This document shows, one piece after another, positions 29,404-62,163 of a stretch of DNA of 64,000 nt; positions within the stretch are counted from its first letter, which is position 1; each line of letters opens with the position of its first letter. The translations under genes were made by a program, and so were the position numbers. The notes under the pieces were generated by a model, which had not been told where the DNA came from, searched no databases, and saw only the letters and a list, made by a program, of their open reading frames with translations. The stretch is from Devosia aquimaris (GTDB taxonomy: Bacteria > Pseudomonadota > Alphaproteobacteria > Rhizobiales > Devosiaceae), in contig NZ_JAIEZN010000001.1 in NCBI RefSeq assembly GCF_020169335.1, forward strand, positions 1,567,426 to 1,631,425, written 5' to 3'.

Positions 29404-29479
<76 letters not shown>

Positions 29480-29560: not shown

Positions 29561-30664
29561 TTACAGCTGGTCCGATTTTGCGGCGAACGAACCCGATGAC
29601 TCAAGCTTTTGAATCACCGTGTCAGCGCCACCTGCGAGGTAGTGTTGTCGGATGACGCGCTCGCATTCTTTTTCATCATGACCACTGGCTTCAGCAATGT
29701 CTTTGATGGCCACGCCAGCCCGATAAGCCAGGGTGATGAAAGTGCCGCGGAAGTCGTGAAAGGTTACGCCCGAAATCCCCGCAGCCCTGACGGCCGCCCC
29801 CCAGGACGCCTTGAAGCCAGACTTCCATGCAACCCCGTCTTCGGTGGTCAAGACTGTCGTTGGCAACGCCTTTCTTTTCCGAGGGTTGGGATGCTCTGCC
29901 CGTGCCTCCTGTTCAGCTCGTATCGTCTCAAGCGTTGCCCGCAATTCGGCCGAAACGAGAATTTTGACTCGCTTGCCTGCTTTGCCACGGCCAGCCTTTC
30001 CTTGTTGCAGCCGGATGTACTCACCATCATACGCACGCCAACTGAGGTTTAGGAGATCGGCTTGGCGCTGACCCGTCCACTTGGCCAAGATCATCGCACG
30101 CACCAGGTGCGTTGGACCGACTGCAGCAAACAACGCCATCTGTTCGTCGGACCAGATGATGTCCTTCCGGGTTCCGCTTGAAAGCTTGGTCAACGCGTCC
30201 AGTGGGTTTCGTGAGATCTCCTCTTCGTCTTTGGCGAAGTTCAAGACCTTAGTGAAAACCGCCATAGTCAGATCCGCCGCACGCGGAGAGACAGCGAGGA
30301 CATCGTCGCGCCACTTCCGGATGACGCTGCGCGCGCCCTTCTCCTCCAGCGCCGCTATCGGCATAGTACCGAACTTGCCCTGAATTCGGGAAAGGGCCTT
30401 GTCGTATCCTTCTTTCGTTTTTGCAGATAGGCCGGTGTAATCTGCTGAACTGATGTATGACCGGATTAAGTCCGACAAAACCCGCTTGTGCTCTGGTGGC
30501 GCGCGAAAGAGCTTATGGCGTTGAAACTCAGCGATGAAGGCGTCTTGGTCGCGAAGATCTGCTTGGATGCGTGGGCCGCCCCGCCAAGCATAGTAGTAGG
30601 TTCGGAGGCTGCCACGAGCCAACCGCTTCGTAACCCTGTGTACCCCCTTTAGGTCAACGCGCAT
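29561..30664 (-). CDS. Tyrosine recombinase (integrase) of the island
   Basis: 367 residues from the ATG at 30664. An N-terminal SAM-like core-binding domain (about 70-165) is followed by the catalytic domain. Catalytic residues seen are the first R in AKWTGQRQADLL, the HxxR box in VTFHDFRGTFIT, the H in EASGHDEKE, and the nucleophile Y in VIRQHYLAGG. It ends 81 bp from tRNA-Thr, the usual layout of an integrative element, and should catalyse insertion and excision there. The start overlaps the stop of a small upstream ORF by 11 nt. Confidence 0.93.
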   Translation of the reverse strand: MRVDLKGVHRVTKRLARGSLRTYYYAWRGGPRIQADLRDQDAFIAEFQRHKLFRAPPEHKRVLSDLIRSYISSADYTGLSAKTKEGYDKALSRIQGKFGTMPIAALEEKGARSVIRKWRDDVLAVSPRAADLTMAVFTKVLNFAKDEEEISRNPLDALTKLSSGTRKDIIWSDEQMALFAAVGPTHLVRAMILAKWTGQRQADLLNLSWRAYDGEYIRLQQGKAGRGKAGKRVKILVSAELRATLETIRAEQEARAEHPNPRKRKALPTTVLTTEDGVAWKSGFKASWGAAVRAAGISGVTFHDFRGTFITLAYRAGVAIKDIAEASGHDEKECERVIRQHYLAGGADTVIQKLESSGSFAAKSDQL

Positions 30665-30875
30665 TTTCGTCAGCAAGCCAACGCTCAAGCGCTGATCGAG
30701 GATACGATGGTTCAGCTGGGGTCTTTTGGTCAACTGCGGCCATAGCGTCTGATAGCAACACTATTTGTCCCTGCGGCGTAACCTCGCAACGAGTGACGTT
30801 TAGGCCGGCGCGTTTTGCTCCGGTAAGTGCCCGGAACACATCATCAGCGGAGAAACTTGCGCGTTTGCGTGGCAA
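30654..30875 (-). CDS. Small basic protein coupled to the integrase
   Basis: 73 residues from the TTG at 30875, overlapping the integrase start by 11 nt. Segments FSADDVFRALTGAKRAG and a C-terminal YPRSALERWL look folded. I cannot name the family. Small ORFs in this position often act with the integrase or as excisionase, which is inference only. Confidence 0.65.
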   Translation of the reverse strand: MPRKRASFSADDVFRALTGAKRAGLNVTRCEVTPQGQIVLLSDAMAAVDQKTPAEPSYPRSALERWLADENAR

Positions 30876-31699: not shown

Positions 31700-32090
31700 A
31701 TGCTCCTCTTACCCAAAGAGGGTTCGGATAACCGTCCTGATGCAGCTGGCGAGACGGCCTTAACTCGGACAGGAAGGATCGGAAATCCCTTCAGAGATGC
31801 CGTGTCGGCAGCCATCCGTCGAAAGGAAGCGGTTCCGCTCCACAGATTGACGCCGGAGAGGCCTACCCCAATTCCCTCCCCCAGTTCCCATCGAAGCTGT
31901 TGCGCGAGCGGAGAAATCTAGGATCAGGTCGACTCCAAAGCGCTTCCTCAAAATTCTCTTGACAGCGCGCCGCCCGCCATCCAACCCGGGACGAGCGGGC
32001 CAGATTCAGCCCTGCGGCACTATGAGAAGGGAGGGGCAGACGATATGGGCGACATGCAAACTAAGAAATACCGGAGTTTGGGCGGGCCAA
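31700..32090 (+). repeat. Multi-hairpin dispersed element, copy A
   Basis: Diverged partner of the sequence at 50,797-51,255. Shared blocks, in the same order and spacing, include GGAAGGATCGGAAATCCCTT (31772), AGATGCCGT, a TTGACGCCGGAGAGG block (31848), CATCGAAGCTG (31890), CTCAAAAT, GACAGCGC, CAGATTCAGCC and a Shine-Dalgarno-like AAGGGAGGGGCAGACGA just before an ATG (32045). Arms GCCCGC (31972) and GCGGGC (31995) form a hairpin where copy B pairs CTGGTCC with GGACCAG. By eye identity is roughly 70-75 percent. No protein is evident; the frame that opens at 32045 is only 60 codons. Confidence 0.7.
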
Positions 32091-32325: not shown

Positions 32326-33240
32326 ATGTTGCGCTCTAGGGTGGAGGCCCAGGCTGTGTACAATCTGATTATGCGGGGCAATGACGAGCCTTGGAATCCG
32401 GGCGGCTCTCAGATGGAGCTAGCCCGCGTACTAGAGTACACGGGCGTCTGGCAGCAGCGGGAGTACGCTGCGAAAGACATGGCCGCCTTCGAAGCTCTTC
32501 GAGCACTTCCTGTTTTGCTAGGGTTCGAAAAAGGCGCTGAAAACCCCGCCAGAATTGCTTGGCTAACTGACCTGCTGATTGACAGCGGGGACGTCCATTT
32601 TCGTTTCAGGGTTGACGAGAGCTTTGACCCAATCCCCACGGCGACCGTCTTCGAACACCGTCGAGAGCTTGGTTTCGACCACGATTGGGAAGACAACCGT
32701 ACTCATTGGGCCGTTAAGGACGCCGATCTAGTTCAATGGGCGACCGCCAATGGTTTCCGCCGAGTCGTCGCGGCACCCGAACCGCCAAGGCCGGTTGAGC
32801 GCGCTCGCGTATTCATCGTTCACGGGACAAATGACGCGGCCAAAAACGAGCTGGCGCTCTACCTTACGCGCGTCGGCACACTGCCGGTCATTCTGCACGA
32901 GCAGGTCAACGCAGGGCGGACGATCATAACGAAGTTCATCGAGACTGCCGCAACCGCCGACTTTGCCGTTGTCCTCATGACCGGCGATGACGTGGGCGGT
33001 CGGGACTCGGCTAGCCTATCGCCGCGAGCGAGGCAAAACGTGATCTTTGAGCTTGGTTTCTTCCTGTCTCAGCTTCCAGTGGAGCGCGTGGTTGTTCTTC
33101 TCGGCCCTAGTGTCGAACGACCGTCAGACTATCAGGGTGTCGTTTACATTAGCCACCAGCTGGGCTGGAAAAACGAGCTGGCCCGCGAAATGTCGGCCGC
33201 TGGAATTGCCATTGATTTTGAGGCAGCGATCCGCAGTTAG
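32326..33240 (+). CDS. TIR-like (CAP12/Pycsar effector type) protein with unknown N-terminal domain
   Basis: 304 residues. Residues about 160-300 match the predicted nucleotide-binding TIR-like domain (PF10137), found in CBASS/Pycsar effectors and other anti-phage NADases. Seen are VFIVHGTNDAAKNELA, LHEQVNAGRTIITKF with the candidate catalytic glutamate, VVLMTGDDVGG and SPRARQNVIFELGFF. The N-terminal 150 residues are of no family I know. No cyclase or cyclic-nucleotide synthase lies nearby, so this is a stand-alone form: it may sense a signal through its N-terminal domain and deplete NAD+. The start at 32326 has only a weak ribosome site; GTG 32341 is an alternative. Confidence 0.75.
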   Translation: MLRSRVEAQAVYNLIMRGNDEPWNPGGSQMELARVLEYTGVWQQREYAAKDMAAFEALRALPVLLGFEKGAENPARIAWLTDLLIDSGDVHFRFRVDESFDPIPTATVFEHRRELGFDHDWEDNRTHWAVKDADLVQWATANGFRRVVAAPEPPRPVERARVFIVHGTNDAAKNELALYLTRVGTLPVILHEQVNAGRTIITKFIETAATADFAVVLMTGDDVGGRDSASLSPRARQNVIFELGFFLSQLPVERVVVLLGPSVERPSDYQGVVYISHQLGWKNELAREMSAAGIAIDFEAAIRS

Positions 33241-33246
33241 CGTGCG

Positions 33247-33477
33247 TCAGGCCGGAGCACCTTTGTTCACGGGAGTGAGCGGAACGATAGGGCCAGTCAT
33301 CTCAACCAGCGTGTTGGTGCGCTTTTCTTGCTGGGTCGCGTGATAGGTCAATTCAGATATACTGATGCTGACGCTGAGGGCATTGTAGCCGACATCGCTC
33401 CACCCTTGTGACTTTTGCATCGCGCGCACCTCTGCAGCGCCGATATCGCGCGAGGCGAGGGTGGCGTTGACATGCAT
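33247..33477 (-). CDS. Hypothetical small protein
   Basis: 76 residues from ATG 33477, converging on the TIR gene with 6 nt between. The composition is protein-like, with an alternating beta pattern SVSISISELTYHAT followed by MTGPIVPL. I do not recognise it. A longer in-frame reading upstream is antisense to the HEPN-like gene and unlikely. The ribosome site is weak. Confidence 0.45.
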   Translation of the reverse strand: MHVNATLASRDIGAAEVRAMQKSQGWSDVGYNALSVSISISELTYHATQQEKRTNTLVEMTGPIVPLTPVNKGAPA

Positions 33478-33570
33478 GACAAGCAGCGTCGTGACCTTCG
33501 AAGGGGCTTTTGGTGGTCTCCTATAGTGGTGAGGTTCTTGGCCAGCAACGGCTGGCAGAAAGGGGGCGGC

Positions 33571-34386
33571 ATGGTGGGTCAGGCGACGGAGAAGGTCACC
33601 GTAACCTTGGATAGAAACGCAGTTGGGCGGGTGGCCTACCAAACGGCAAGCGAGGTGTCCGACATATTTAGTTTGGCCTTTACGGTCATTGCTGGCGCAG
33701 ACGTTGAGAACATCCCCACCAATCCAGACCAACACATGCACTTCAGCTTGAAAACGCGGGGCCGCAGCGCTGCCGAGCAACGCGAAGCGTATCAGCGGCG
33801 CCTGGTTGCAATGTGCTTCTCCGACCTGGCGCGGGCCATCCGTGAGACGCTAGAGACCGCATGCGCGCATATGGAGCTGTTGAAGACGCCGCCAGAAACG
33901 TTGGCGGGCGGCAGTCCTGATGAAGTCCTGGAGAGGGTCGTTGCCCGCATGGAAGCAATTCGGCCCAGCGCCCAAGCGCTCAACTATCCCCAGCTTCTCA
34001 AACGGGTGCAGGATGGACTATCTGCTCCTCTCACATGGACGCCGGAACTACATTCATTCCAGACGGTGCGAAACTGTCTCGAGCACCGGGGTGGTGTGGT
34101 GGGAGAGCGCGACGTTGACCAAAACGGACAGCTCACCTTGAGCCTTCCGACCGTCGAGCTTTACCACCTCGATGCCGAGGGCAATGAAACGGCAATGCAT
34201 TTCGATGCCCCTACCCAGAAGGAAACGCAGGTGATGCTGCGCACCATCACCAGAACGCAGACTTTCAACCTCGGGCAAACAGTGTCGATTCCGCCTCGTG
34301 ATGTGAAAGAGGTTGCGTTTGCCGTGTTAATGCTGGCAGGCGATCTTGTGGCCAAGATGCCTGCCTCAGACCGACAGGAAATCTAA
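33571..34386 (+). CDS. HEPN-like hypothetical protein
   Basis: 271 residues from ATG 33571, preceded by AAAGGGGG. Two long helical segments (about residues 65-130 and 150-200) end in FQTVRNCLEHRGG. The RNCLEH sequence matches the RX4H motif of HEPN ribonucleases common in toxin and abortive-infection systems. A beta-rich C-terminal part follows (about 205-265). No signal peptide or membrane helix. The neighbouring TIR gene supports a defence role, but the HEPN assignment rests on the motif and helix pattern alone. Confidence 0.6.
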   Translation: MVGQATEKVTVTLDRNAVGRVAYQTASEVSDIFSLAFTVIAGADVENIPTNPDQHMHFSLKTRGRSAAEQREAYQRRLVAMCFSDLARAIRETLETACAHMELLKTPPETLAGGSPDEVLERVVARMEAIRPSAQALNYPQLLKRVQDGLSAPLTWTPELHSFQTVRNCLEHRGGVVGERDVDQNGQLTLSLPTVELYHLDAEGNETAMHFDAPTQKETQVMLRTITRTQTFNLGQTVSIPPRDVKEVAFAVLMLAGDLVAKMPASDRQEI

Positions 34387-34665: not shown

Positions 34666-34773
34666 GGGTTTTGCTCTCCATGTGTTATCCATGTGCCACC
34701 CAGCGTTACACTGTCTTGTTCGAATCTCTATTTTGGTCAATCGATGGGAGTGTTCGCGAATGAGGAGGACTTG

Positions 34774-35619
34774 ATGCTCCGGGAGCACGCTACAAGCGTT
34801 GTCATTGCCGTTTTGACCGTGGTAATCCCTGCCGCTTTATTTGCCCTAGGCACTTTTATATTTGCCGTTCTGCAGGATCAGTATTCTCGAACGCAGATAT
34901 CTGCTTACGTCGTGAAGCTAGACAACCCTGAACCTCATCTACTCTCAGACGCCAGGGCCACGCTTAGTGTGGCAGCGACCCAGTTGGACGGACTCGTAGC
35001 TAAACTCGATGGCGAAGCCGCCGTTGTCCTGAAGATTTTGAGGGATATGCTTCGCGATGATGAAAAGCTTCTGTCGGATGTACCTCCTGAAATTGCTCAT
35101 ATGCGACTGGTGAACAACACCGACCGCACTCTGAAAGACGTCGCCCTGATGCCATCGAAGGAGGCCTTATCCTATTTGGGGAGCGGAGCGACTGTGGTCT
35201 ATGACAGCGAGTGGAAAATTGTCGGCCAAGAGCAACTCGATAAGCTGAACATCGCCCCGCACAGCAGTCTAGACTTTATTCTCCTTGGTGACCGGTCCTA
35301 CCGTGTACCCGAATTGGCGAAGGTAACGCTTGGCGGGGCCGAGATCGACGTTGTGAAAGTCGATTTGGACACTCTCTCAAACAGGTGGGACTATTTTTGG
35401 GAAGTCAGCGTCATTAGCGGCTTAGTTTATGTCCTTGCCGCCTTGGGGGCCGTGCTGATGGTGTTGATCGGTATTTCGGCGCCGATCACCGCGATTCCAA
35501 CATGGCGCCGGCGCCTGACTTCAAAAGTGGAATTTGAACGCATGCATGGTGATGTGGAGGCGCTCTATGGTCGCTATAGGCCCGGCGAGAGGAACCCTTT
35601 GGAACCCACTACCACCTGA
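34774..35619 (+). CDS. Hypothetical membrane protein with two transmembrane helices
   Basis: 281 residues from ATG 34774, which has GAGGAGG 5-6 nt upstream; an ATG 30 nt earlier lacks one. The first transmembrane helix is at about residues 8-33 (VVIAVLTVVIPAALFALG), the second at about 207-232 (ISGLVYVLAALGAVLMVLIG). The 170-residue middle part is soluble, presumably periplasmic or cytoplasmic, with acidic helices and a beta-rich second half. The short C-terminal tail is basic and cytoplasmic. I do not recognise the family. GC content is well below that of the core genes. Confidence 0.7.
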   Translation: MLREHATSVVIAVLTVVIPAALFALGTFIFAVLQDQYSRTQISAYVVKLDNPEPHLLSDARATLSVAATQLDGLVAKLDGEAAVVLKILRDMLRDDEKLLSDVPPEIAHMRLVNNTDRTLKDVALMPSKEALSYLGSGATVVYDSEWKIVGQEQLDKLNIAPHSSLDFILLGDRSYRVPELAKVTLGGAEIDVVKVDLDTLSNRWDYFWEVSVISGLVYVLAALGAVLMVLIGISAPITAIPTWRRRLTSKVEFERMHGDVEALYGRYRPGERNPLEPTTT

Positions 35620-36511: not shown

Positions 36512-36970
36512 CTAGAAGTTGCGAATATTTTCGTCCAACCAATCGCCGACGTCATCCCACCACTCGTGCAAGTCTTCGCGAAAATTGTCGATCAATTCGC
36601 CGGGCTGATCCCAGTTCTCCAAAAGATTATCGAGACATTCTTTGAAAAATTCCTTAGTGGCATCCCACGGATTATTTCCATCACTGCGAATACCTGCGGT
36701 TGGTTTTATCTCGATAGCGATGCACTCCAAAAGCTTGGGGACGATGCTTTGGACACGATCCTCTCCACTCTTGACAAGCTCCCAGGCACCCTTTGTCTGA
36801 CTTAGTTCAGCTTCGAATGGCGCGAACTTCAGGAATGTTTTGTGAGTAGCAATCGCATGTACCAGATAGCAGTTGAGTCGCTCGATAGGAAGCTCGGCGC
36901 TCTTTGAACTTTCCAAAAAGCGCTCAAAGGCCGCCCTTGTTTCATCGCGAAGATCGTTTAGCACAGTCAT
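36512..36970 (-). CDS. Hypothetical helical protein, third gene of the secreted nuclease cluster
   Basis: 152 residues from ATG 36970, overlapping the end of the PLD gene by 29 nt. It is largely alpha-helical, with a tryptophan-rich acidic C-terminus (DLHEWWDDVGDWLDENI). There is no signal peptide or membrane helix. I do not recognise the family. The overlap suggests co-translation with the PLD protein, perhaps as an immunity or binding partner, which is inference. A 126-codon frame on the opposite strand is less protein-like. Confidence 0.6.
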   Translation of the reverse strand: MTVLNDLRDETRAAFERFLESSKSAELPIERLNCYLVHAIATHKTFLKFAPFEAELSQTKGAWELVKSGEDRVQSIVPKLLECIAIEIKPTAGIRSDGNNPWDATKEFFKECLDNLLENWDQPGELIDNFREDLHEWWDDVGDWLDENIRNF

Positions 36971-38237
36971 TACCGTCCACCCATTTCTTGCCACGATAGG
37001 ACCCAAGCATCTCGGCTATTGACCGCCAATGATCATAGTCGACAGATACCTGCCATAACTTATCAAAGAATCCAGCAAATCCAAGAGCGACTTCCTCGTC
37101 AGAAGAGAAATAGTTGTTCTCCAAATTGTCGGTAATTGCTGAATAGGTAAGATTTCCAGAGCCGAAAAGGACCCGTATTCCAAAAGACCCCCGGAATATG
37201 AAGAATTTGGAGTGGAGAAAGCTGCTGCCTGGTTTAGTGAGCAGGTATCGTCGGGACACACCAAGGCCGCACAACTGGCGGTCCCATAGAATGTGCTCGT
37301 CATAGCTATTTGCCAACCCTGCAACAGTTGGATCGGTGGACAACAGTATATCGTCATCCCGCAGATATCTGACTTTGGCGCCATTATCTGCCGCAAGCCG
37401 AATGATCTCCAGGATCCGGTCGGAATTGTAGGATTGAGATGAAATGTCTATTTCATCGGAGCGACCGGCCCAGAAGGCCAACTGCGCGAGGTACGCGTCC
37501 TGATCGAATGGCATCAGGTAGGGGACGACAGAGGCATCTCGGGTACTGTAGGACGGTAAACGGCATTGCTGGTACAAGCCTTTCAGAGGCTCATCCTGCG
37601 GAAACGCCATGAAGCGCTCGAAGATTTGGACCACGCATCTGTGCCATAAATAGAGCTGGCTTGTCGCCGAGCCTCTAAATAACACGTTGAAATCGACCAC
37701 CGTGGCTGACCGAGTAGTGGGGTTGCCGCTGGAGACATATGTCCAGCTTTCGTTATCGGCGACGGCTGCAAGAAACTTCGGGTGGAAAGAGGAAAGCCCG
37801 TCAAATAATGGGACAGATCTTACGCTCTTATGAGCCGAGGCTAGGCTGCAGTTCAATAAGGGACGTAGCGCGCTATCGCTTCCCCCTACGAAAAGCCTGA
37901 CGTGGACGGCGCTTGGAGACAAGGCGCTGCATAGCACCCGAGAAAAAGTCCGATCAGCGACTGCCCAGAACAATCCATCGACCTGATCAAAGTGGCCCTG
38001 ATTTATTCTGAGCAGCGAAATGAGGTAGCTATCGCCCTGACGTTCTTGATCTTCAGCATCGCAATAGAGCTCGAAAGTGGGAAGCTGGCGGTCGGTGTCG
38101 GGGATGACGTTCGGCTCACGGCCGCTGGACACGGCATTGCATTTTGGAAGATTGCCAAAGAAAGCGACGTTTTCCACTGGGGGGCTCAGTTGGCCGGATA
38201 TCACGATCAGCAGCGCGGTGAGTGCTTGGAGAAACAC
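36942..38237 (-). CDS. Secreted phospholipase D-like (HKD) protein
   Basis: 431 residues from a GTG at 38237. A hydrophobic N-terminus (LTALLIVISGQLS) suggests a signal peptide. Two half-sites of the PLD fold are visible: HPKFLAAV followed by SSGNPT (about residues 151-176), and HSKFFIFR followed by FGSGNLT (about 341-365). Both keep the H-x-K and the downstream G/S-N, so the active site looks intact, though the usual aspartate of HxKxxxxD is replaced. PLD-fold enzymes can be nucleases (Nuc, BfiI) or lipases. Next to an endonuclease/exonuclease-phosphatase gene, a nuclease role is favoured. Confidence 0.72.
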   Translation of the reverse strand: MFLQALTALLIVISGQLSPPVENVAFFGNLPKCNAVSSGREPNVIPDTDRQLPTFELYCDAEDQERQGDSYLISLLRINQGHFDQVDGLFWAVADRTFSRVLCSALSPSAVHVRLFVGGSDSALRPLLNCSLASAHKSVRSVPLFDGLSSFHPKFLAAVADNESWTYVSSGNPTTRSATVVDFNVLFRGSATSQLYLWHRCVVQIFERFMAFPQDEPLKGLYQQCRLPSYSTRDASVVPYLMPFDQDAYLAQLAFWAGRSDEIDISSQSYNSDRILEIIRLAADNGAKVRYLRDDDILLSTDPTVAGLANSYDEHILWDRQLCGLGVSRRYLLTKPGSSFLHSKFFIFRGSFGIRVLFGSGNLTYSAITDNLENNYFSSDEEVALGFAGFFDKLWQVSVDYDHWRSIAEMLGSYRGKKWVDGNDCAKRSSR

Positions 38238-38242
38238 AGTTG

Positions 38243-39142
38243 CTACCCACCTGCCAGTTCGAAGGCTACAGGGCAGTGATCACTGATCCGGTTCGGCAGA
38301 AGTAGTTCCAGATCGCTCGTTTCGATAGGAACGGTCGCTAGCCGCAACCCTGCGGCCAATTTTGCCACAATGACAAAGTCGATCGGCTGCGGCGACGGCC
38401 TCAGCCAGCATGGTGGTATGGCGATGAACTCCCTCGCCCACGGCACTTTGTCGTCGCGCCATTGCTTGAGACGTGGGTTAAGCAACTCTCTATTGAAATC
38501 GCCGATCACCAGCAACGCATCTACCAAACCAATCTTCTGCTCCACGCCAGCTCCGATCGCTTCGAACTGTGAGTTCATCAACCGGCAGTCCAACTGGACG
38601 CTAGCGAGGGTGTCATTGCAACCGCTTTTCATATGAGCGTGGACCAGCCCGATCTTTTGCTGCCCCCAGGCTAGTTGGACGTAAAGTATATCCCGGGTGA
38701 GATAATTTCCATCCACGGCCCCGTCCAGACGCCAGCTTTCGGTTTCGGCAACCTGAAGTGTTGCATTCTCCGCAATCGCAACGAAAGGTTGCACCAGTCT
38801 TTCTAGTTGAGGCGGAGCACTGACTATTTCGCGATACTCCTCGGTGGACAGCACCGAGTATAGAGGACCCACCGTCGATCGAACGGCTAGATCGTTTACC
38901 GCCTCTTGAAGCAGCAGCGCGTCGTACCCGTCAGCCAAAATCTGCCTTATCGCAAGGAGGTCGGCTTCAAGTCGCCTGGTACCAATTGCTCCACGATAGG
39001 AGTATCCAGATGCCGGAACGTAGTTCGACACGTTCCAAGACAGGAATTTGATGGTATCGGCCGAGGAAGCCGGGGGAGAGACGCTTCCGAGAATACAAAA
39101 GAAGGCAATGACCTGCTTGATGTATCTGGCCCCGATCACCAC
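38243..39142 (-). CDS. Secreted endonuclease/exonuclease/phosphatase-family protein
   Basis: 299 residues with a Sec signal peptide (cleavage near SSA|D, about residue 28). EEP-fold motifs are all present: FLSWNVSNYV, LLLQEAV (metal Glu), HAHMKSGC, VIGDFNRE (catalytic Asp/Asn), and a terminal ISDHCPVAFEL (catalytic Asp-His). DNase I-like nucleases, phosphatases and sphingomyelinases share this fold. It ends 6 nt before the PLD gene start. The pair would be exported together. Confidence 0.82.
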   Translation of the reverse strand: MVIGARYIKQVIAFFCILGSVSPPASSADTIKFLSWNVSNYVPASGYSYRGAIGTRRLEADLLAIRQILADGYDALLLQEAVNDLAVRSTVGPLYSVLSTEEYREIVSAPPQLERLVQPFVAIAENATLQVAETESWRLDGAVDGNYLTRDILYVQLAWGQQKIGLVHAHMKSGCNDTLASVQLDCRLMNSQFEAIGAGVEQKIGLVDALLVIGDFNRELLNPRLKQWRDDKVPWAREFIAIPPCWLRPSPQPIDFVIVAKLAAGLRLATVPIETSDLELLLPNRISDHCPVAFELAGG

Positions 39143-39454: not shown

Positions 39455-40786
39455 CTATCTTCCGACAAGCCCCGGCATGGCGCGTCTAGCGCCGTCCTCC
39501 GATATGAGGTCCTCGCCCCTCATCTCAACAATTCTTAAAAACACCGAAGCCGACAGCTCACTCGCAAACGTTTGAGCTTTGTCTTTCTTACTGCCATCTG
39601 CAAAATCAGCTATGCCCTTGATAGCGAAATACTGGGGCGGTCTACCCATGGACCTATAGGCAGCCGTATAGAGCGCGTAGATTTCCATCTCCAAGCCCAC
39701 TGCTGTGGCGTGCCGAGCCTCGATCGATCTGCGGAGATCCTCGTCGGCTACAATTGATGAGCCTGATAAGACAAGGCCAGATCTAACGCGAGGTACGTCG
39801 CCAACATCACTACCTAGCGCCTTCTTGAGGGACCTAAACCGCGGTAGCTTTGCCTTGGACGACATTAGCTCGGCAAAACTATCGTCGTACCTCTCGATCA
39901 TCTCGTCGATGACGGCACGGCTGCCAGGCGAACAGTTTCGGTTTTTTCCCCTGTCATCAAAAACAGACTTTCCATCATCGCGGCTATGTTTCCCGTCCTG
40001 CCAGCAGGCAGCCTCGGTGGCGACGATGCAATCCAAAAGATTGCATCCTTTTCCCTCGAAACCGGCGCACATGCCTAACATCGCCACAACTCTCGGACGC
40101 AAAAACTGGATCGCTTGAGCGGCGATAGCTGCTGTCCCAGCCAGCCCCATTTCACCTACACAAACAAGCGCAGTCTTAAAGGACCGGCCGGATTGGGTAT
40201 GAATTGCACCGAAGTGGGAAGCCTCCCTCCAAACCGGGTGTCGCGACGACTTGGTTTCACCGAACAAGACATTTCGTATTGGCAAATACTCACTATCGTG
40301 CCTAGCAGTTAAAACCAGAAAATCGAAGTCAAAATTCGACATCTGAAAGGACAGGCTAGTATGAATTGCGGTCGCGATGAACCTAATTTTTGCGCCAATG
40401 AAGTTTGCCCAACCATCTTCATTCCAATTGAATACCGATAGTCCGAACAGATTTTCCTCAAAGAACAACTTTTCTTGCTCTGCCATATCCTCATATTCGG
40501 TAAGGCCGAATATATTGACGGGCGTACTTAAGGTTCCTGATGCAATTTTCTCGATGAGGATCCTCGACCAGCGTGGATGTGGCTCCCCGTTGCCGGCCGG
40601 GAGCATGATGTCCAAAACTACAAAATCAAACACCTGCTCTGAAAGCCTAGCGCAGGCCTCTTCGTAGTTTCCTGCTTCCACAAAAGCCAAGTTAAACGGA
40701 GCGGTTGTCTCTGCCAACCTCTCCATCACTCGACGCCTTTTGGCCTCGGAATCGTCAATTATCAAAACGCGAAAGTCGTTCCGCAT
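39455..40786 (-). CDS. Receiver domain fused to a nucleoside phosphorylase domain
   Basis: 443 residues. Residues 1 to about 130 are a CheY-like receiver: the acidic pair in IIDDSE (about 10-14) and phospho-acceptor D59 in VVLDIMLPAG; the usual lysine near position 105 is not obvious. Residues about 150-425 are a PNP/MTAN-type nucleoside phosphorylase: GEMGLAGTAAIAAQA, MLGMCAGFEG, the nucleoside-binding VGLEMEIYAL and the catalytic-aspartate region KGIADFADGS. The ATG at 40786 overlaps the stop of the lone receiver (TGATG), with a T7 run just upstream. No transcription-factor output domain is present, so phosphorylation would gate an enzyme that cuts nucleosides or nucleotides. Confidence 0.85.
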   Translation of the reverse strand: MRNDFRVLIIDDSEAKRRRVMERLAETTAPFNLAFVEAGNYEEACARLSEQVFDFVVLDIMLPAGNGEPHPRWSRILIEKIASGTLSTPVNIFGLTEYEDMAEQEKLFFEENLFGLSVFNWNEDGWANFIGAKIRFIATAIHTSLSFQMSNFDFDFLVLTARHDSEYLPIRNVLFGETKSSRHPVWREASHFGAIHTQSGRSFKTALVCVGEMGLAGTAAIAAQAIQFLRPRVVAMLGMCAGFEGKGCNLLDCIVATEAACWQDGKHSRDDGKSVFDDRGKNRNCSPGSRAVIDEMIERYDDSFAELMSSKAKLPRFRSLKKALGSDVGDVPRVRSGLVLSGSSIVADEDLRRSIEARHATAVGLEMEIYALYTAAYRSMGRPPQYFAIKGIADFADGSKKDKAQTFASELSASVFLRIVEMRGEDLISEDGARRAMPGLVGR

Positions 40787-41241
40787 CAAAAAAACCTGCT
40801 GGCCAAATCAGTTAAGACTGGCTGCCACTCGGTGCTAGACAGGTCCACCTCAACGACGCCCCGAAGGTTGTCGGTGAAAATTTCCTCAAGAGTAGTTGCC
40901 ACCTCGTGGACGCTATGAAAGTCACCGAACTCAGTGTCAACAAATGAAGAATGTTGGGTCGCAATCAATACGGGAACGCCAATGCGCATTTCGTCCAGTT
41001 GTTGCAGTACCTTCACGCCAGCAAGTTGTGGCCGGTCTATTCCTTCCTTCATACCGCTGGCCCGCTGAAAAGACAGATCCAGGACCACCCCATCCCATCG
41101 TTCAGCCGTGAGGACCACCATGGCGACGGACACAGTGTTAACTAGAAGAATATACGCCAACTCCCCGAAGGCAGCCTTTAGGGCAAAAGTTATGGCGTTC
41201 GCCTTCTGAATGTTATCCTCAACTATGAGAACTCGCTTCAT
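40786..41241 (-). CDS. Stand-alone receiver-like protein
   Basis: 151 residues. The receiver hallmark acidic residues are in VLIVEDN (about 4-10), and the phospho-acceptor candidate is D55 in VVLDLSFQR. The threonine/serine is in LIATQHSS, and the conserved lysine is missing. The ATG has GGGAGGAAG 9-11 nt upstream, inside the end of the kinase-like gene, with which it overlaps by 23 nt. It may relay phosphate between the kinase-like protein and the receiver-phosphorylase, or act as a phosphate sink. Confidence 0.8.
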   Translation of the reverse strand: MKRVLIVEDNIQKANAITFALKAAFGELAYILLVNTVSVAMVVLTAERWDGVVLDLSFQRASGMKEGIDRPQLAGVKVLQQLDEMRIGVPVLIATQHSSFVDTEFGDFHSVHEVATTLEEIFTDNLRGVVEVDLSSTEWQPVLTDLASRFF

Positions 41242-44152
41242 AAATCGCGCTTCCTCCCTTGTGCTTGAGTATCACTCCGACTTCAAGTCTTCGGGGGTTA
41301 GAAAGCAATCGCAAACGAATTTGGGGCTTTGAGCCTAGCGACTGCAGGCCGCGCGCGATAATTTTCTGAAGTCCAGACCCGGTGTCCTCAGCGGCCTTTT
41401 TTGGGCTAGCCTGATTTGCTGAACGGACCAGTTCAGGCAGCTCGTTCCTGATCTTTGCGGCTGTTGCAGTGCTTATAGTGTTCTGACAAATGACCCGCAA
41501 TTCGTTACGGCCAACCTGCAGTTCAATCTGAATTTTAGTGGCCTTGCCCATGTTTGAATGCTTAAAGCCGTTCGAGATCAAATTCTTACACACAGAATCG
41601 AGAAATGCGTAGAATTTGCCAGAAACTTCGTACTCCGAGCTTGTCACGACCACCCCTTCGCCCGGAATGATTCTGGACGTTGTAGAGCTTATTAGGTTGG
41701 GGCGTTCGGGCCTATGGCTCAAGGCAACGAGCTTTACTAGATTCGAAAACTTGAAATGCTCAATTCGCTCGTCTGGGTCGGCGATAGCTATCCATCGAGC
41801 CGCTTCTCCAACAGCCGTAGCGAGCTGCATGCTTAGAGCTTCCGTGAATCTAGTATGACCCAGTTCATCATGGCCCCAACCTTCCCAGTCTTCCGAAGGA
41901 ATGATGGCCGTTATCCGTATAAGATACTCTTGCACTGTACGTGCAAGTTCTTCTCTTGCCTTGCTGAGAAAATAATCCACCTCGGATTTAATTAACTTAA
42001 CGGCTTTGTATATCGTTTCGTTAGCGTTCAAGACATTCTGCGGTTGCGCAAGGTCCGCATTAAGAAGACGGGTAACTACCGTCGACGAACGAACGAAGAC
42101 TGTACTTTCAGGGTCAACGGCCAAGTGCCGAGTATTGTAGGCCTTGATTGCACTTGTCAGCTCGTCGTGCAAGCGGTTTAGCAGAGCCCCGACCTCCGTC
42201 GGCTGGCCATCCGCTGTGAGGGGGCGCAGCCGCGTTGGGGTGTACCCCTGAGCCCTGCCTGAACGACGGGACTCCGTAACCGCATCCTGAAATGCGGAGA
42301 TGAAGTGATTTAAGAGTTGGTTGTGTTTCAGGCCATCACTGATCGCAGTCTTAACATTGTCGGGACCGTCCAACATTACAAAGGAGACGATCTGAGAAGC
42401 CAGCAGCGCTGACATTCTTGGGACGATCTGGTCTTCTTCGTTTGCGTTGAGGTCAACCAAGCGTTTTGCGAACTGTAACCTATCGCCAAAGTAAGAGGCT
42501 ATTTGTTTGCCAGTATCTTCCCAACTGATACGGAGGGTACCCAGCATCTTGTGCCCACGCAAGAAAAGCACGCCTAGCGTAGCCTCTTCTTCACGAAGGA
42601 TATAATTGGCCTCCTCGTCCTCCAACATCCCCAACTGGGCTAGTTCGGTTGCAAGGTCGGATCGCAACGCGCTAAGCTTAGCGTCATCCCGGAGTTCCGC
42701 TGATTGCAGCAGCGGCTGTATCCATTCAGGTTGATGGTTCAGGGCTACTGCCAAGACTGCAATTGTAGACGGTTTGAGCAAAGACGAAAGGTACATCGAG
42801 CGTGCAAAACCGGACAATCCTTCAGCACTTTTAGCTAGCGAAAAAATCTTTGGATTTGGAAATGAATCTACAAGCGAGAGCATTGAACTCTCGTAAGCGC
42901 CATCTCCTTTCCGAATTCGAACGGAGCGGTGTCTTCGCCCAACATTTGGATGTCCACAAAGCAAATTGACGAGCGCCATCTCTGGACTAACAATTCTGGG
43001 TTCTCTTCGAATTGCTATAGTTAACGATGTCCAGTCAAGAAACCAGCAGCTGTACGGGTCAGTGTTATACAGCTCAACAATCTGCTCAACGGTCCTAGAA
43101 AAATCATTCCTATCGATACTATAGGCGATTTCTCTTATCTTCAAGATGATCCGGTCGAGCGATTCCATGTCATCAGATTTGACGATACCCTCGCCAGACA
43201 ACAAGTGTCCCAGAAACGGATCTTGGTTTCCCCGTTTTGCGAATAATTCGGTCGTGAACCTTTCGGCAACGTCGTCGTAGTTGCGGATCCGAGACCACCT
43301 CCTCAGCCACAACAACTTCGCCACCAAGGTCGCGACACCCCAAACTTCCGATAGAGCAACGTAAGTCGGGATGTCGAAGTGTTCTAGGTCCGCCTGTGCG
43401 TCACACAAGATGCACAGGAGAGTAGGTAAATCAGGCCCCATCACGCGAACGATATGCTTTCTCGCCGACAACAGAGACCTTCTCATGCCATCAATTCCGG
43501 CGCCGACAGTCGGTATGCCCAGTGTGTTGAGTAGCTTGAAGACGTCTTCCGTTGTTCCCAAATGGAGCTGCATTACAGATGCCACGCTTTCTGTAAGCTT
43601 ATTCCGCAACTCAGAGACGGAAGGATTGGTAGGGGACAAAGTCTCCCAAATTATCGACCGTGCCGCAGGTGAAGCGTCTGTAATTGGTTGCGGGAGGGGT
43701 GAATCGAGATACGCGCCGCCCAGGCAGTAAGCAATAAGAGCCGACCTAAAGTCGCTGACTGGCAGCCCAATCAAAAAGTCTCTCTCTGACAATATGGAAG
43801 AAAAATTGAAGTCTTGGAGTACAGAATACGCTAGATCGTCTAGCACTCCATCGCTTGAAACGATTCTATTCCCCTTCGAGCGCTCGTGAGGTGTTGCGAC
43901 ACTTGCAAGCTCACGCAAGTAGATCCCTCGAAGTTCGAAACCTCTAACAATAATGCTGTCTGTCACCGGCTTCCCCATCAAGGAAAATTGCTTCACAAAT
44001 TGGGTTTGGTCAAGGGCTGCCACCAGCCGGTCCCTTGTGAGGTTGGCGCGCTCATCCATTGGGCCGAAGACAGGAGAATAACGATAGCCATTACCCGAAG
44101 ACACATAAATCCAAATTGGAACTTGGACAATACGATACTCACTCTGAGACAT
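41219..44152 (-). CDS. Very large protein with C-terminal histidine-kinase-type ATPase domain
   Basis: 977 residues from ATG 44152 (a TTG 21 nt upstream is possible; neither has a clear ribosome site). Only the last 130 residues are recognisable: a GHKL ATPase with N-box KNLISNGFKHS (about 855) and G-box DTGSGLQKI (about 925). I find no clear phospho-acceptor histidine box before it. The first 850 residues have no membrane segment and are mostly helical, suggesting a cytoplasmic sensor. Overlap with the receiver gene and the layout of the three genes imply one transcript. The GC content is close to 50 percent, clearly foreign to the core. Confidence 0.75.
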   Translation of the reverse strand: MSQSEYRIVQVPIWIYVSSGNGYRYSPVFGPMDERANLTRDRLVAALDQTQFVKQFSLMGKPVTDSIIVRGFELRGIYLRELASVATPHERSKGNRIVSSDGVLDDLAYSVLQDFNFSSILSERDFLIGLPVSDFRSALIAYCLGGAYLDSPLPQPITDASPAARSIIWETLSPTNPSVSELRNKLTESVASVMQLHLGTTEDVFKLLNTLGIPTVGAGIDGMRRSLLSARKHIVRVMGPDLPTLLCILCDAQADLEHFDIPTYVALSEVWGVATLVAKLLWLRRWSRIRNYDDVAERFTTELFAKRGNQDPFLGHLLSGEGIVKSDDMESLDRIILKIREIAYSIDRNDFSRTVEQIVELYNTDPYSCWFLDWTSLTIAIRREPRIVSPEMALVNLLCGHPNVGRRHRSVRIRKGDGAYESSMLSLVDSFPNPKIFSLAKSAEGLSGFARSMYLSSLLKPSTIAVLAVALNHQPEWIQPLLQSAELRDDAKLSALRSDLATELAQLGMLEDEEANYILREEEATLGVLFLRGHKMLGTLRISWEDTGKQIASYFGDRLQFAKRLVDLNANEEDQIVPRMSALLASQIVSFVMLDGPDNVKTAISDGLKHNQLLNHFISAFQDAVTESRRSGRAQGYTPTRLRPLTADGQPTEVGALLNRLHDELTSAIKAYNTRHLAVDPESTVFVRSSTVVTRLLNADLAQPQNVLNANETIYKAVKLIKSEVDYFLSKAREELARTVQEYLIRITAIIPSEDWEGWGHDELGHTRFTEALSMQLATAVGEAARWIAIADPDERIEHFKFSNLVKLVALSHRPERPNLISSTTSRIIPGEGVVVTSSEYEVSGKFYAFLDSVCKNLISNGFKHSNMGKATKIQIELQVGRNELRVICQNTISTATAAKIRNELPELVRSANQASPKKAAEDTGSGLQKIIARGLQSLGSKPQIRLRLLSNPRRLEVGVILKHKGGSAIYEASSHS

Positions 44153-44445: not shown

Positions 44446-45967
44446 TCACATGTCGGTGGCATAGTTCCACGAAAGCAGTTCATTGATGCGACTCTGCTTG
44501 TGGTAGGCGACGATGGCTTGGAGGGTCGCGGCCAGCCAGGCATAGGGATTGACGGCGTTGAGCTTGCTGGTCTCGATCAACGAGGCGATGACGGCCTAGT
44601 TTTCGACCCCTGCATCATGGCCGGCGAAAAGTGCATTATTTCGGTTCAGCGCGATTGGCCGGATAGTCCGCTCGACGGCATTGTTGTCGAGCTCGATGCC
44701 GCCATCGGTGGGGAACAGCACTAACACCGGCCAGTATTTGGCGATGTAACTCAAGGCCTCCCCGAGCTGCGCTTTCGCGGAGACGCGGGCGCGATTAAGT
44801 TCAAGCCATTGTTTTATTCTTCCGGCCGCCGGTGCTAATCGCTGCTGGCGAGTGGCAAGGCGGGCATTCGGGCCGAGGCCTCGGATCTCGGCTTCGATGG
44901 CATAGAGCTCGCCGATGAGCCGCACACCCTCTTCTGCAGCCGGGGCAGTGCCTGCGCGGGTGATCTCAATCAGTTTGCGACGGGCATGGACCCAGCAATA
45001 GGCGAGCTGTATATCCGCTCCGACACGGCCGAGCGCAAGCGGCCGGTTATAGTCGGCATAGCCATCCACCTGCAGGATGCCGCTAAAGCCCTACAATATC
45101 CGTTCGGCATGAAGTCCACCTCGGCCGGGAGCAGATGTGAAGGCAACACCGGGTGGTGCGGTGCCACTCCAGGGCCGATCATCGCGGGCCAGAGCCTAGA
45201 AGTGTCCGGTCTTGGTCTTGCGGGCACCGGGATCGAGCACCGGGGCGCAGGTTTCATCCATGAACAGTTTCGATGACCGTTTGAAGTCAGCCATCAGGGC
45301 ATCGTAGGCCGACGCAAATCGAAGGCGGCCCGACCAACCCAATCGGCACGGGCTGAGCGGTCCTGATCAACACCCTGACGGGTAAAAATCTGCGCCTGGC
45401 GATACAACGGCGGGTGATCGGCGTACTTGCTGACTTGTACATGGGCGACCATGGCCTCGGTTGGCATCCCGCCCGGGATCAACCGCCCGGGTGCCGGAGC
45501 CTGCACCACGCAGTCCGTGCAGGATCGGCAAGCATATTTGGAGCGACGGGTCACGATCACCCGGAACTGGGCCGGATCACATCGAGCCGCTCGGAGACCT
45601 CCTCGTCAATGTGGTGCAGGCCGCCGACACAGCCACAGACCAGGCTTTCGGGCTCAATGATCTCTTCGATCCGCGGCAGGTGCTTGGGGAGCGACCCACG
45701 ATTGGCGCTGCGCGGTTTGGCCGGTCGCTTGGCGGCACGGTCCTAAGCATCTTCTTCGGCCTGGACCGCCGCGATGGCCGTTTCCAGATCCTCCAGCGCC
45801 AGCTCGAACTGGTCCGCATCGCTCTTTTCTGGTCGACGCCCGAACGCGGCGACCAGCTTTTCCAGTTGGGCAATCCGTTCATCCTTGCGCCGATCACGCA
45901 CCTCTGCGGTGACGAGCATCGCCTTTGGGGCAGCAATATCGTCAGGAAGTTCGGCGGCATCGAGCAT
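44446..45967 (-). pseudogene. tnpC: IS66 transposase TnpC, inactivated
   Basis: The pieces in order: an N-terminal helix with RDRRKDERIAQLEKLV and EKSDADQFELALEDLE; then TAG (before DRAAKRPAK); LPKHLPRIEEIIEPE; a frameshift near 45,575; IVTRRSKYACRSC (zinc fold); further shifts near 45,300 and 45,070-45,250; the DDE core QVDGYADYNRPL, YCWVHARRKLIE, and ELDNNAVERTIRP; and a TAG where GVENW is expected (44596-44598), followed by the ending SRINELLSWNYA. At least four disruptions. Confidence 0.85.
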
Positions 45968-46021
45968 GACCAGATTCTACCAAGTCAGGCGCTGCCGATA
46001 CCGCAAAAAACAAGCCTTGAG

Positions 46022-46389
46022 TCATCCCGCCGCAGCTATTCGACCGCTTCTGGGGCCCGCGCTTCCACCGACCGCCCCCCGCCGCCAGTCGAGCCTAGAG
46101 AACAGCGCCTCGAACTGTGCGTGGCTCAACGTCATCAAGCCGTCCTCCACCGCAGGCCAACTGAAGCTGTGCTCTTCAAGGCGCTTGTAGGCCAGGACCA
46201 GACCCGTGCCATCCCAGTAGAGCAACTTCAGCCGATCGCTCTTCCTGGCGCGGAACACAAAGATCGTGCCGGTGAACGGATCCTCGTGCAAACGTTCTTG
46301 ACCAGCGCAGCCAGGCTGTCGTGGCCTTTCCGGAGGTCAACCGGCTTGGTGGCTACCATGATCCGCAGCCGGTTCGAGGTGAAGATCAT
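46022..46389 (-). pseudogene. tnpB: IS66 TnpB (Orf2), frameshifted
   Basis: The ATG at 46389 overlaps the tnpA stop (ATGA) and reads MVATKPVDLRKGHDSLAALV. One base is missing near 46,290; the second frame continues HEDPFTGTIFVFRARKSDRL and LLYWDGTGLVL to the stop. These are hallmark TnpB segments. A single indel inactivates it. Confidence 0.85.
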
Positions 46390-50796: not shown

Positions 50797-51255
50797 CTGC
50801 TTCTGGCTCATCCGAGAGCCAGAAGCAGATCGTGTCGTTTACTCCGCTCACCCGAAGTGGGCTCGGGGTAAACGCCCCGAGACGGCCGGCAGGCCGGCCT
50901 TCTCAATGACGGAAGGGATCGGAGATCCCTTCAAAGATGCCGTTCCGGCAGCCAATAACCAAAAGAAAGAAGATCCGAGCCAGAGGTTGACGCCGGAGAG
51001 GTCCGCCTACACTCCCCTACCCAGCTTCCATCGAAGCTGGGGCAAGCGCCGCAGGCGCAAGCGGACAAATCCGGAGTCAAGTCGGCCTCCGGGCCCCATC
51101 CTCAAAATGTGCGCGACAGCGCAAGCGGGGCTACATCATCTTTCTGGTCCAGCATTAGCGGACCAGATCGAGCCAAGCGACATTATGAGGAAGGGAGAGG
51201 CAGACGACCTTGGCGAAGCGCACAAACAAGAAATCCAAGGTCTCGATTGGGGCCG
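50797..51255 (+). repeat. Multi-hairpin dispersed element, copy B
   Basis: Partner of the 31.7-kb element. At least seven hairpins in a row: CTGCTTCTGGCTC/GAGCCAGAAGCAG (50797-50828, 13 bp), CTCGGGG/CCCCGAG (50862-50881), GCCGGC/GCCGGC (50885-50898), GAAGGGATC/GATCCCTTC (50912-50932), CCCAGCTTC/GAAGCTGGG (51020-51041), GCGCC/GGCGC (51046-51058), CCGGAG/CTCCGG (51071-51092), CTGGTCC/GGACCAG (51144-51166). It ends in the same SD-like AAGGGAGAGGCAGACGA before a start (TTG 51210). No known RNA family comes to mind. Confidence 0.75.
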
Positions 51256-53473: not shown

Positions 53474-53601
53474 TATCACCGCACTCCTTATTTTTCGTGG
53501 ACTTCAGAATGTGACTACGAATAATATTCGTCAACTACAATATCATCTTCAAGCTTTGAGGGTGAGAACTGAACCTCGAATTTGACAAGGGAGAGCCAAA
53601 C

Positions 53602-57375: not shown

Positions 57376-58299
57376 TCACTCTTCGTTGAAAAAGTCCTCA
57401 TCGAGACGCTTGAACTCCACCGTGCGATAGCCGCGAACACCGACCTGATGCTCGATCATGAGGTCAGCCAGCTCCCGTCCGTCGATCAGGATGATGCGCT
57501 GGGCTAGGTGTTTCACATAGTCCCGCGCGGGCTGGCTGAAGGTCGAGGTGGTGACGAACACGCCCTTGCTGGCGCCCAGCCCGACCAGGCTGCCGACAAA
57601 GCCATTGACGTCAGGACGACCGACCTGGTTGGCGGGCGCATAGCGTTTCGCCTGCACATAGATGCGGTCGAGCCCGAGCCGGTCCTCGTTGATAATGCCG
57701 TCCACGCCACCATCGCCGGAGCGACCCAGCTGGGCCGCGGCGTTCTTGTGGCTGCCGCCATAGCCCATGGCGACAAGCAGGTCGACGATAAGCTGCTCGA
57801 AGAAGGCTGGGCTATTTTCGAGGATCCGCTCCAGAAGCTCGTCACGCAACGCGCCTGTCAGCGAAGCATAGGCGGCATCGATCTGCTCTTCTGGCGTCGT
57901 CGAGGCGGCGACGGCGCGAACGGGCTCAATGATCCCGGTGTCTGTGCCGGCAGTGCTGGACTCGTTCCGGTAAAACTCGCGGAATGCCGTTTCCTGCATC
58001 AGAAGCGCGACATCGATCTTTTCGGGCTTGCTGGCCAGCAGGGCCCTGCCCTTTTCCGTCGCCACGAACCGACCGCGTGCCGGTGACGCGATCAGCCCGG
58101 CCTTGCTCATATAGAACTTGGCCCAGTGGATACGGTTGTGCAGCACACGCTGGCGACCACTTGGCAGCATCTGCTCGCGTTCGTCCGATGTCAGGCCGAG
58201 ATCATCGGCGATGCGCCCGGCCACATCGGCCACCCGAGTTTCGCCCTCCGCCGCGAGGCGAAGTACGGGCAGCATCAGGGTCTGGTAATCGGGGATCAT
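57376..58299 (-). CDS. mrr: Mrr-type restriction endonuclease
   Basis: 307 residues from ATG 58299. The N-terminal winged-helix (Mrr_N, about 1-95) binds DNA. The catalytic Mrr_cat domain (about 155-300) has FFEQLIVDLLVAMGYG, the Asp in GDGGVDGII and the QxK motif VQAKRY, the PD-(D/E)xK variant used by Mrr. These enzymes cut methylated DNA. It is the last gene of the minus-strand restriction operon, 7 nt after the upstream gene. Confidence 0.88.
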   Translation of the reverse strand: MIPDYQTLMLPVLRLAAEGETRVADVAGRIADDLGLTSDEREQMLPSGRQRVLHNRIHWAKFYMSKAGLIASPARGRFVATEKGRALLASKPEKIDVALLMQETAFREFYRNESSTAGTDTGIIEPVRAVAASTTPEEQIDAAYASLTGALRDELLERILENSPAFFEQLIVDLLVAMGYGGSHKNAAAQLGRSGDGGVDGIINEDRLGLDRIYVQAKRYAPANQVGRPDVNGFVGSLVGLGASKGVFVTTSTFSQPARDYVKHLAQRIILIDGRELADLMIEHQVGVRGYRTVEFKRLDEDFFNEE

Positions 58300-58306
58300 G
58301 GGCGCC

Positions 58307-59176: not shown

Positions 59177-59203
59177 GCTCCCCCTCGTCGCTTGCCGATT
59201 GCG

Positions 59204-62098: not shown

Positions 62099-62163
62099 GG
62101 TGAGATTCGCTTCCGCTGGCCGGTCTGAGGCTCGCTTGTAGTGGGTGGGCAGCCCGGGTCAAC

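What the first reader, a model, noticed from the sequence alone, without database searches (positions are those of the whole stretch)
39455..44152. Phosphorelay-like trio ending in a receiver-nucleoside phosphorylase
Three minus-strand genes overlap by 23 and 1 nt: a ~977-residue protein with a GHKL ATPase tail, a lone receiver, and a receiver fused to a PNP/MTAN-type phosphorylase. Two-component outputs are nearly always DNA-binding or cyclic-nucleotide domains; a receiver gating a nucleoside/nucleotide-cleaving enzyme is unusual. PNP domains do occur as effectors or sensors in bacterial conflict systems (established in general). The large protein's N-terminus is a cytoplasmic ~850-residue region I cannot assign, a natural place for sensing phage or stress. 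The low GC, the overlaps and the position inside a defence-rich island support a transferred functional unit. Defence function is inference.
Basis: partly seen in the sequence, partly recalled or inferred. Interest (0 to 1): 0.82.

Follow-up and report, generated by a model that had tools for sequence, protein, structure and literature searches.

The report
Divergent Detocs ATP-cleaving phage-defence operon
Three overlapping genes look like a distant member of Detocs, a known bacterial defence in which a sensor kinase is thought to respond to phage infection and switch on an enzyme that destroys the cell's ATP; the part that would do the sensing is unlike that of its relatives.

Summary
The trio is real: A (41219-44152, 977 aa), B (40786-41241, 151 aa) and C (39455-40786, 443 aa), minus strand, overlapping by 23 and 1 nt. 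It is not a new kind of system. PADLOC candidate PDC-M60 matches C (2.2e-63) and B (8.4e-15), A only weakly (0.012). The architecture is that of Detocs: histidine kinase, phosphate-buffering receiver, receiver-PNP ATP nucleosidase. Of 67 fetched loci, 52 have a full-length C, and all 52 carry B and A. The window keeps the receiver aspartates (B D55 47/47; C D59 51/51), PNP residues E166, E368, D394 (51/51) and a kinase histidine, H610 (49/49), about 250 residues before the N-box. It lies on a ~37.5 kb island bounded by a 50-bp repeat of the tRNA-Thr end, with integrase, TIR and restriction genes. Unusual is the divergence: full-length C is at most about 30% identical to relatives found, and A's first ~480 residues match none of 47 aligned kinases. 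Verdict: a divergent member of a known defence family; ATP cleavage and phage defence are inferred, not shown here.

The parts
41219..44152 (-). Gene A: DtcA/PDC-M60A-like histidine kinase, 977 aa from ATG (TTG at 44173 would give 984 aa)
   Evidence: ORF; profile homology to 47 other kinases over residues 487-960 (hhalign with L021, E=3.1e-18); PADLOC PDC-M60A only 0.012
42323..42325 (-). Codon of H610 (977-aa numbering), proposed phosphoacceptor
   Evidence: 49 of 49 rows in alignment A2; 57 of 58 in a wider set, the exception being L018, a 378-aa gene of other architecture; acceptor role is inference
41264..41758 (-). GHKL ATPase domain of A (residues about 799-963)
   Evidence: HATPase_c 0.014, below cut-off; fold match to histidine-kinase catalytic domains, Z 12-13; N861 and G927 invariant in 49 of 49
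42692..44152 (-). N-terminal helical region of A (residues 1-487), putative sensor, unassigned
   Evidence: No match to the N-termini of 47 other A proteins (hhalign probability 0.3); mostly low-confidence model
40786..41241 (-). Gene B: lone receiver, DtcB/PDC-M60B-like, 151 aa; phosphoacceptor D55 at 41077-41079
   Evidence: PDC-M60B 8.4e-15; D55 47 of 47
39455..40786 (-). Gene C: receiver fused to PNP/MTAN-fold nucleosidase, DtcC/PDC-M60C-like, 443 aa
   Evidence: PDC-M60C 2.2e-63 over 7-429; AlphaFold mean pLDDT 91.8
40352..40786 (-). Receiver domain of C (about residues 1-145), phosphoacceptor D59 at 40610-40612
   Evidence: Response_reg 7.3e-06, below cut-off; D59 51 of 51
39503..40330 (-). 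PNP/MTAN-fold domain of C (about residues 153-428) with E166, E368, D394
   Evidence: MTAN fold Z 28.4; the three residues 51 of 51
29404..29479 (+). tRNA-Thr; its last 50 bp (29430-29479) form the left end repeat of the island
   Evidence: ARAGORN; exact 50-bp copy at genome C1:1634393-1634442, about 3 kb beyond the window, where ARAGORN finds no tRNA (L093)
29561..30733 (-). Tyrosine recombinase at the left end of the island that carries the trio
   Evidence: Phage_integrase 2.6e-09

Best explanation
The trio is a divergent Detocs (defensive two-component) system. Proposed mechanism: A, a soluble histidine kinase, senses some consequence of phage infection through its N-terminal helical region and autophosphorylates, probably on H610. 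Phosphate passes to D55 of the lone receiver B, a buffer that soaks up basal signal, and, when the signal is strong, to D59 of C. The PNP domain of phosphorylated C then cleaves the base from ATP (and dATP), so that phage growth and the cell stop. Shown here by sequence: gene order, domain content, conservation of the expected phosphoacceptor and catalytic residues, and residence on an integrative island. Inferred: the signal, the phosphotransfer, the roles of B and of H610, ATP as substrate, and phage defence.
For: PADLOC PDC-M60C 2.2e-63 and PDC-M60B 8.4e-15. All 52 loci with a full-length C (of 67 fetched) carry B and A. Invariant residues kept: B D55 47/47; C D59, E166, E368, D394 51/51; A H610, W787, N861, G927 49/49. 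Profile homology of A over 487-960 (E=3.1e-18) with shuffled and reversed controls at E of 4 or more. H-to-N-box distance 251 against a median of 250. MTAN fold of C. Island with tRNA-end repeats, TIR, type I and type IV restriction genes. Detocs descriptions from passages of PMC11249213 and PMC11728103.
Against: A scores only 0.012 with PDC-M60A and is not found with that model in its own genome at E<=0.001; its first ~480 residues show no homology to 47 other kinases. The closest relatives' C is only about 30% identical. That PDC-M60 equals Detocs was not shown by a published locus: the E. coli trios found are not at the published site. No activity data exist here.
Confidence: 0.85

Rival explanations
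1. A Detocs-architecture defence system whose effector in this divergent clade has another substrate than ATP/dATP, such as another adenine nucleotide or a phage-modified nucleotide.
For: C is only about 30% identical to other DtcC-like proteins and forms a long branch; the fold alone (MTAN/futalosine hydrolase) does not fix the substrate.
Against: E166, E368, D394 and the lysines K390 and K400 are invariant across 51 rows, window included; K266 is K in 50 and R in one, L021.
Confidence: 0.12
2. A two-component stress or metabolic regulator that happens to use a nucleosidase and has no role against phage.
For: No phage assay exists for this trio; MTAN-like enzymes are mostly housekeeping (fold matches).
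Against: Patchy occurrence: PDC-M60C in 8 of 397 genomes of the order, and in none of the 11 other genus and 9 other family members listed; location on a mobile island with other defence genes; relatives on plasmids and beside integrases and TIR genes; NCBIfam nucleosidase models far under their cut-offs (21.6 against 169 bits).
Confidence: 0.08
3. A decayed or silent copy on an old island.
For: The IS66 genes just upstream are fragments; divergence is high.
Against: All three frames are open at full length and keep every residue that is invariant in the family.
Confidence: 0.04

Closest known systems
Detocs (DtcA, DtcB, DtcC with PNP effector)
   Same: Three genes in the order histidine kinase, lone receiver, receiver plus PNP nucleosidase (passages; window).
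   Different: Very divergent; A about 170 aa shorter than most relatives (977 against mostly 1,130-1,215 aa), with an N-terminus that matches none of 47 others. Primary paper not held, so no direct comparison with the tested systems.
PADLOC candidate PDC-M60
   Same: C and B match models PDC-M60C and PDC-M60B; genes adjacent and in the same order as in 52 related loci.
   Different: A reaches only 0.012 with PDC-M60A, over 775-944, while typical members reach 1e-60 and better.
MTA/SAH nucleosidase (MTAN) and futalosine hydrolase
   Same: Fold of C's catalytic half (Z 28.4, rmsd 2.6, 224 aligned); EME and D motifs align with MTAN.
   Different: Fused to a receiver in an operon with a kinase; about 16% identity; far below the family cut-offs.
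Window-like trio in Rhizobiales bacterium SYSU XM002 (L021/L010)
   Same: 917/148/435 aa, same order and overlaps; sister of the window in the C tree (100/99); also not matched by PDC-M60A models.
   Different: A only 16% and C 28-30% identical to the window's.

Membership tests
Detocs | Three adjacent genes: histidine kinase, lone receiver, receiver-effector | tested here: met
   Gene order and domains; same order in 52 of 67 related loci
Detocs | DtcA carries a GHKL kinase core with a conserved histidine | tested here: met
   HATPase fold; homology over 487-960; H610 49 of 49. That this His is the acceptor is inference
Detocs | DtcB receiver with phosphoacceptor Asp | tested here: met
   D55 47 of 47
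Detocs | DtcC receiver with phosphoacceptor Asp fused to an effector, typically PNP | tested here: met
   D59 51 of 51; MTAN/PNP fold
Detocs | N-terminal region of DtcA homologous to that of known members | tested here: inconclusive
   No match of residues 1-480 to 47 other A proteins (hhalign probability 0.3); some other members also match the models only in their C-terminal half (L009, L107), so this may not be defining
Detocs | Effector cleaves ATP/dATP | not testable with these tools
   Only catalytic-residue conservation is available
Detocs | Protects against phage | not testable with these tools
   Needs plaque assays
PADLOC PDC-M60 | Match to models A, B and C | tested here: inconclusive
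   C 2.2e-63 and B 8.4e-15 met; A only 0.012, and no hit in the own genome at 0.001; PADLOC's own thresholds are not shown by the tool
Housekeeping MTAN / futalosine hydrolase | Reaches the curated NCBIfam cut-off | tested here: not met
   21.6 bits against 169 (MTAN) and 17.3 against 124.7 (futalosine hydrolase)
Classical HisKA histidine kinase | Recognisable HisKA (H-box) domain directly before HATPase_c | tested here: inconclusive
   No HisKA hit in Pfam (filters drop weak matches). The family-wide invariant His is 251 residues before the N-box Asn; about 110 in classical kinases is recalled, from no call

The most novel reading that the evidence does not exclude
The window and Rhizobiales bacterium SYSU XM002 stand for a separate, deep-branching Detocs subtype in which the conserved kinase-buffer-nucleosidase core has been fitted with an unrelated, shorter helical sensor. 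Current models miss its kinase, and it would respond to a different phage signal. In the whole family the phosphoacceptor would be the non-canonical RIRHG-type histidine, about 250 residues before the ATP-binding N-box.
Probability: 0.35. Interest if true: 0.5.

Novelty: new member of a known kind. Interest (0 to 1): 0.33.

Why it matters
It extends Detocs to a clade whose kinase the PADLOC PDC-M60A models hardly see, so such systems may be under-counted. Comparing it with typical members narrows the likely essential core to a handful of invariant residues (A H610, W787, N861, G927; B D55; C D59, E166, E368, D394), each directly testable. It also marks the N-terminal half of the kinase as the variable, presumably trigger-specific part; what triggers such kinases is, as far as I know, open.

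Tried and rejected
A novel phosphorelay: rejected, because the same trio is a recognised candidate or published family. A housekeeping nucleosidase: far under the cut-offs.

Gag p30 similarity of A's N-terminal part (Pfam 0.05; PDB 0.29): treated as chance, far under cut-off.

Close relatives of A: tblastn of A against 72,556 plasmid records found nothing at 1e-5; the viral-contig scan gave no relative; 299 genomes of the phylum gave the own genome and one weak match, G012. C was the handle that worked.

Fold of A's N-terminus: the model is too poor there (mean pLDDT 61.1, residues 1-273 under 50) and the listed fold matches cover mainly 793-969, so nothing is said about its fold. D105 of A is invariant in alignment A2 (49 of 49), but that region has no profile support; I give it no weight.

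The published E. coli Detocs site yjcB-ssb (PMC11728103) was sought through E. coli trios. The two loci read lie elsewhere (L107 between fimbrial genes and hipA, L108 beside ssrA), so PDC-M60 = Detocs was not proved by locus identity.

Association of six neighbouring genes (the EEP, PLD and small genes downstream, and TIR plus two unknown genes at 33-36 kb) with such trios: tblastn against 102 fetched loci, own-genome copies left out, gave no match, while the control protein C gave 92 matching pieces.

Rows left out of the alignments: of the 52 loci with a full-length C, L051 (its C scores the same as L049's) and L072 were not used for C (50 loci plus window); for A I used 47 of the 52 plus L045 (left out: L019, L051, L061, L072, L083); for B 45 of the 52 plus L045. 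In one search the B and A profiles were built largely from the same loci, so detection there is not independent; the layout had been seen without such profiles. The 58-row set also held loci of other architecture, and its one row without the histidine is L018. In that set two other columns hold recurrent histidines: the N-box one, 39 of 57, and column 294, 16 of 57.
Full report
WHAT IS THERE. Three minus-strand genes, A 41219-44152 (977 aa from ATG; a TTG at 44173 would give 984), B 40786-41241 (151 aa) and C 39455-40786 (443 aa), overlap by 23 and 1 nt. B and C carry receivers (Pfam Response_reg 8.1e-05 and 7.3e-06, both below the curated cut-off). A ends in a GHKL ATPase domain (HATPase_c 0.014, below cut-off), supported by fold: residues about 798-966 match histidine-kinase catalytic domains at Z 12-13. 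C's second half folds as MTAN/futalosine hydrolase (AlphaFold mean pLDDT 91.8; Z 28.4, rmsd 2.6, 224 aligned residues to 4l0m).

WHAT FAMILY. PADLOC's candidate system PDC-M60 has models A, B and C. The window's C matches PDC-M60C over 7-429 (2.2e-63), B matches PDC-M60B (8.4e-15), A matches PDC-M60A only at 0.012 over 775-944; a search of the own genome with that A model at E<=0.001 found nothing. [quoted passage not shown] also PMC10952713, and PMC9966839, passages read). The primary paper (recalled: Rousset et al., Cell 2023) is not held. That PDC-M60 and Detocs are the same is my inference from architecture. PMC11811056 (passage read) says that PDC-M60 and some other PADLOC candidates are given other names by DefenseFinder, but the passage does not say which name PDC-M60 gets.

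CONSERVATION. A scan with an alignment of seven C proteins returned 62 genome loci and 5 viral-contig loci. Of these 67, 52 carry a full-length C, and all 52 also carry B and A (48 of 62 genome, 4 of 5 viral; layouts). Of the other 15, 13 have a partial C match without B or A beside it, one a partial C with B (L068), one a partial C with both (L045); some are cut by contig ends and some are PNP proteins of another build. Residues invariant in the alignments and kept in the window: A H610, W787, N861, G927 (49 of 49 rows each); B D55 (47 of 47); C D59, E166, E368, D394, K390, K400 (51 of 51 each). E368 and D394 line up with MTAN's EME and D motifs in the alignment. Entry titles include Glu12Gln and Asp197Asn mutants of MTAN; their catalytic role, and E166 as the counterpart of Glu12, are recalled and not from a call.

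THE KINASE. A is only 10-16% identical to the other A proteins, so homology was tested by profile. Window plus L021 against the other 47: probability 99.0, E=3.1e-18 over 487-960; window alone: probability 96.3, E=1.6e-09 over 600-962; hmmsearch: 6.7e-10, against a best of 4 among 200 shuffles and 7.7 for the reversed protein. The strongest shared point is a histidine in 'GLxxYLSxRIRHG' (window DGLKHN). It is invariant (49 of 49; 57 of 58 in the wider set, the exception being L018, a gene of another build). Its distance to the N-box asparagine is nearly constant: window 251, median of the other 47 rows 250, range 241-259; L021 is shorter at 227. I propose it as the phosphoacceptor. It lies farther upstream than in classical kinases (about 110 residues, recalled). 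In the last 480 residues of the 58 kinases the only other recurrent histidines are the N-box one (39 of 57) and one column with 16 of 57. This is inference: the model of A is poor (mean pLDDT 61.1).

WHAT IS UNUSUAL. Residues 1-480 of A match nothing in the N-termini of the 47 other kinases (hhalign probability 0.3) and only weakly that of L021 (probability 11.3, E=0.0027 over 200 columns). The histidine lies at 610 (570 in L021) against a median of 790 (range 623-850), so the N-terminus is shorter. Full-length C is at most about 30% identical to relatives found. In the C tree of 51 rows, window and L021 (Rhizobiales bacterium SYSU XM002, same order) are sisters at 100/99, apart from the other 49, but both are long branches, the program warns that their joining may be false, and the root is only the midpoint. 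N-terminal variation is not confined to this pair: L009 and L107 match the PDC-M60A models only over their C-terminal halves. So I file this as a divergent member, and give 'a separate subtype with a replaced sensor' as the novel case.

SETTING. The trio lies on an island that begins at tRNA-Thr (29404-29479), followed at once by a tyrosine recombinase (29561-30733). The last 50 bp of the tRNA recur exactly at genome position C1:1634393-1634442, where ARAGORN finds no tRNA. That gives an element of about 37.5 kb whose right end is about 3 kb beyond the window. It carries a CAP12/Pycsar-type TIR gene (PDC-S35; PF10137), a type IV methyl-directed restriction enzyme and type I restriction genes, a PLD-domain gene (PLDc_2; weak ZacB and DrmC matches) and IS66 remnants. 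GC falls to about 50% over the trio. PDC-M60C was found in 8 of 397 genomes of the order, own included, and in none of the 11 other genus and 9 other family members listed, and in 5 of 385 of the class, own included. Relatives of C occur on 59 of 72,556 plasmid records. Among the eight plasmid and E. coli loci read, neighbours include integrases, a TIR gene, a HEPN/Toprim gene and a caspase-family gene. This is how mobile defence systems are distributed; it does not prove defence, and no statistical test of defence-gene enrichment was made.

MECHANISM. Most likely: infection signal, then A autophosphorylates, then phosphate goes to B (buffer) and, above a threshold, to C, whose PNP domain strips adenine from ATP/dATP, so that phage growth and the cell stop. 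Order, domains and residues are shown; signal, phosphotransfer, buffering, substrate and protection are inferred from Detocs.

VERDICT. Observation confirmed; the defence interpretation is supported by family membership; but the system is a divergent member of a known family, not a new kind.

Noticed in passing
window 32326-33240 (+): TIR gene of the CAP12/Pycsar type (PF10137 1.4e-32; PADLOC PDC-S35 2.1e-55) on the same island; two following plus-strand ORFs (33415-34386, 34693-35619) match nothing in Pfam, PADLOC or NCBIfam.
   Followed up: partly
window 36512-39142 (-): Run of three genes downstream of the trio: an Exo_endo_phos-like gene (3.5e-05, just under cut-off), a PLDc_2 gene and a small ORF without a family. 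No relatives of them were found beside 102 fetched loci, so probably a separate unit.
   Followed up: partly
window 57376-63996 (-): Type IV methyl-directed restriction enzyme, then type I specificity, methyltransferase and restriction subunits (the last runs to the end of the window) on the same island.
   Followed up: partly
window 44596-46291 (-): IS66 transposase pieces (DDE_Tnp_IS66 and TnpB_IS66) in separate short ORFs just upstream of the trio.
   Followed up: no
window 31726-31899 and 50866-51039: A 174-nt direct repeat, 72% identical, 19 kb apart inside the island; unexplained.
   Followed up: no
window 52049-53479 (-): A tyrosinase-domain gene (1.7e-33) within the bounds of the island, an odd companion for defence genes.
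   Followed up: no
L066 1670-8726 and L073 1847-8912: Arcobacter-type contigs in which the PNP gene follows an ORF of about 1,880 aa, with no B or A found by profile; perhaps another build of the system.
   Followed up: no
L017 2545-7446 (reverse-complement coordinates): A relative in which the place of A is taken by two ORFs (610 and 436 aa) before a 171-aa and a 413-aa gene: a split kinase or a four-gene form.
   Followed up: no
L106 1-6173 (Klebsiella pneumoniae plasmid CP110754.1): A Detocs-like trio directly behind a TIR-domain gene.
   Followed up: no
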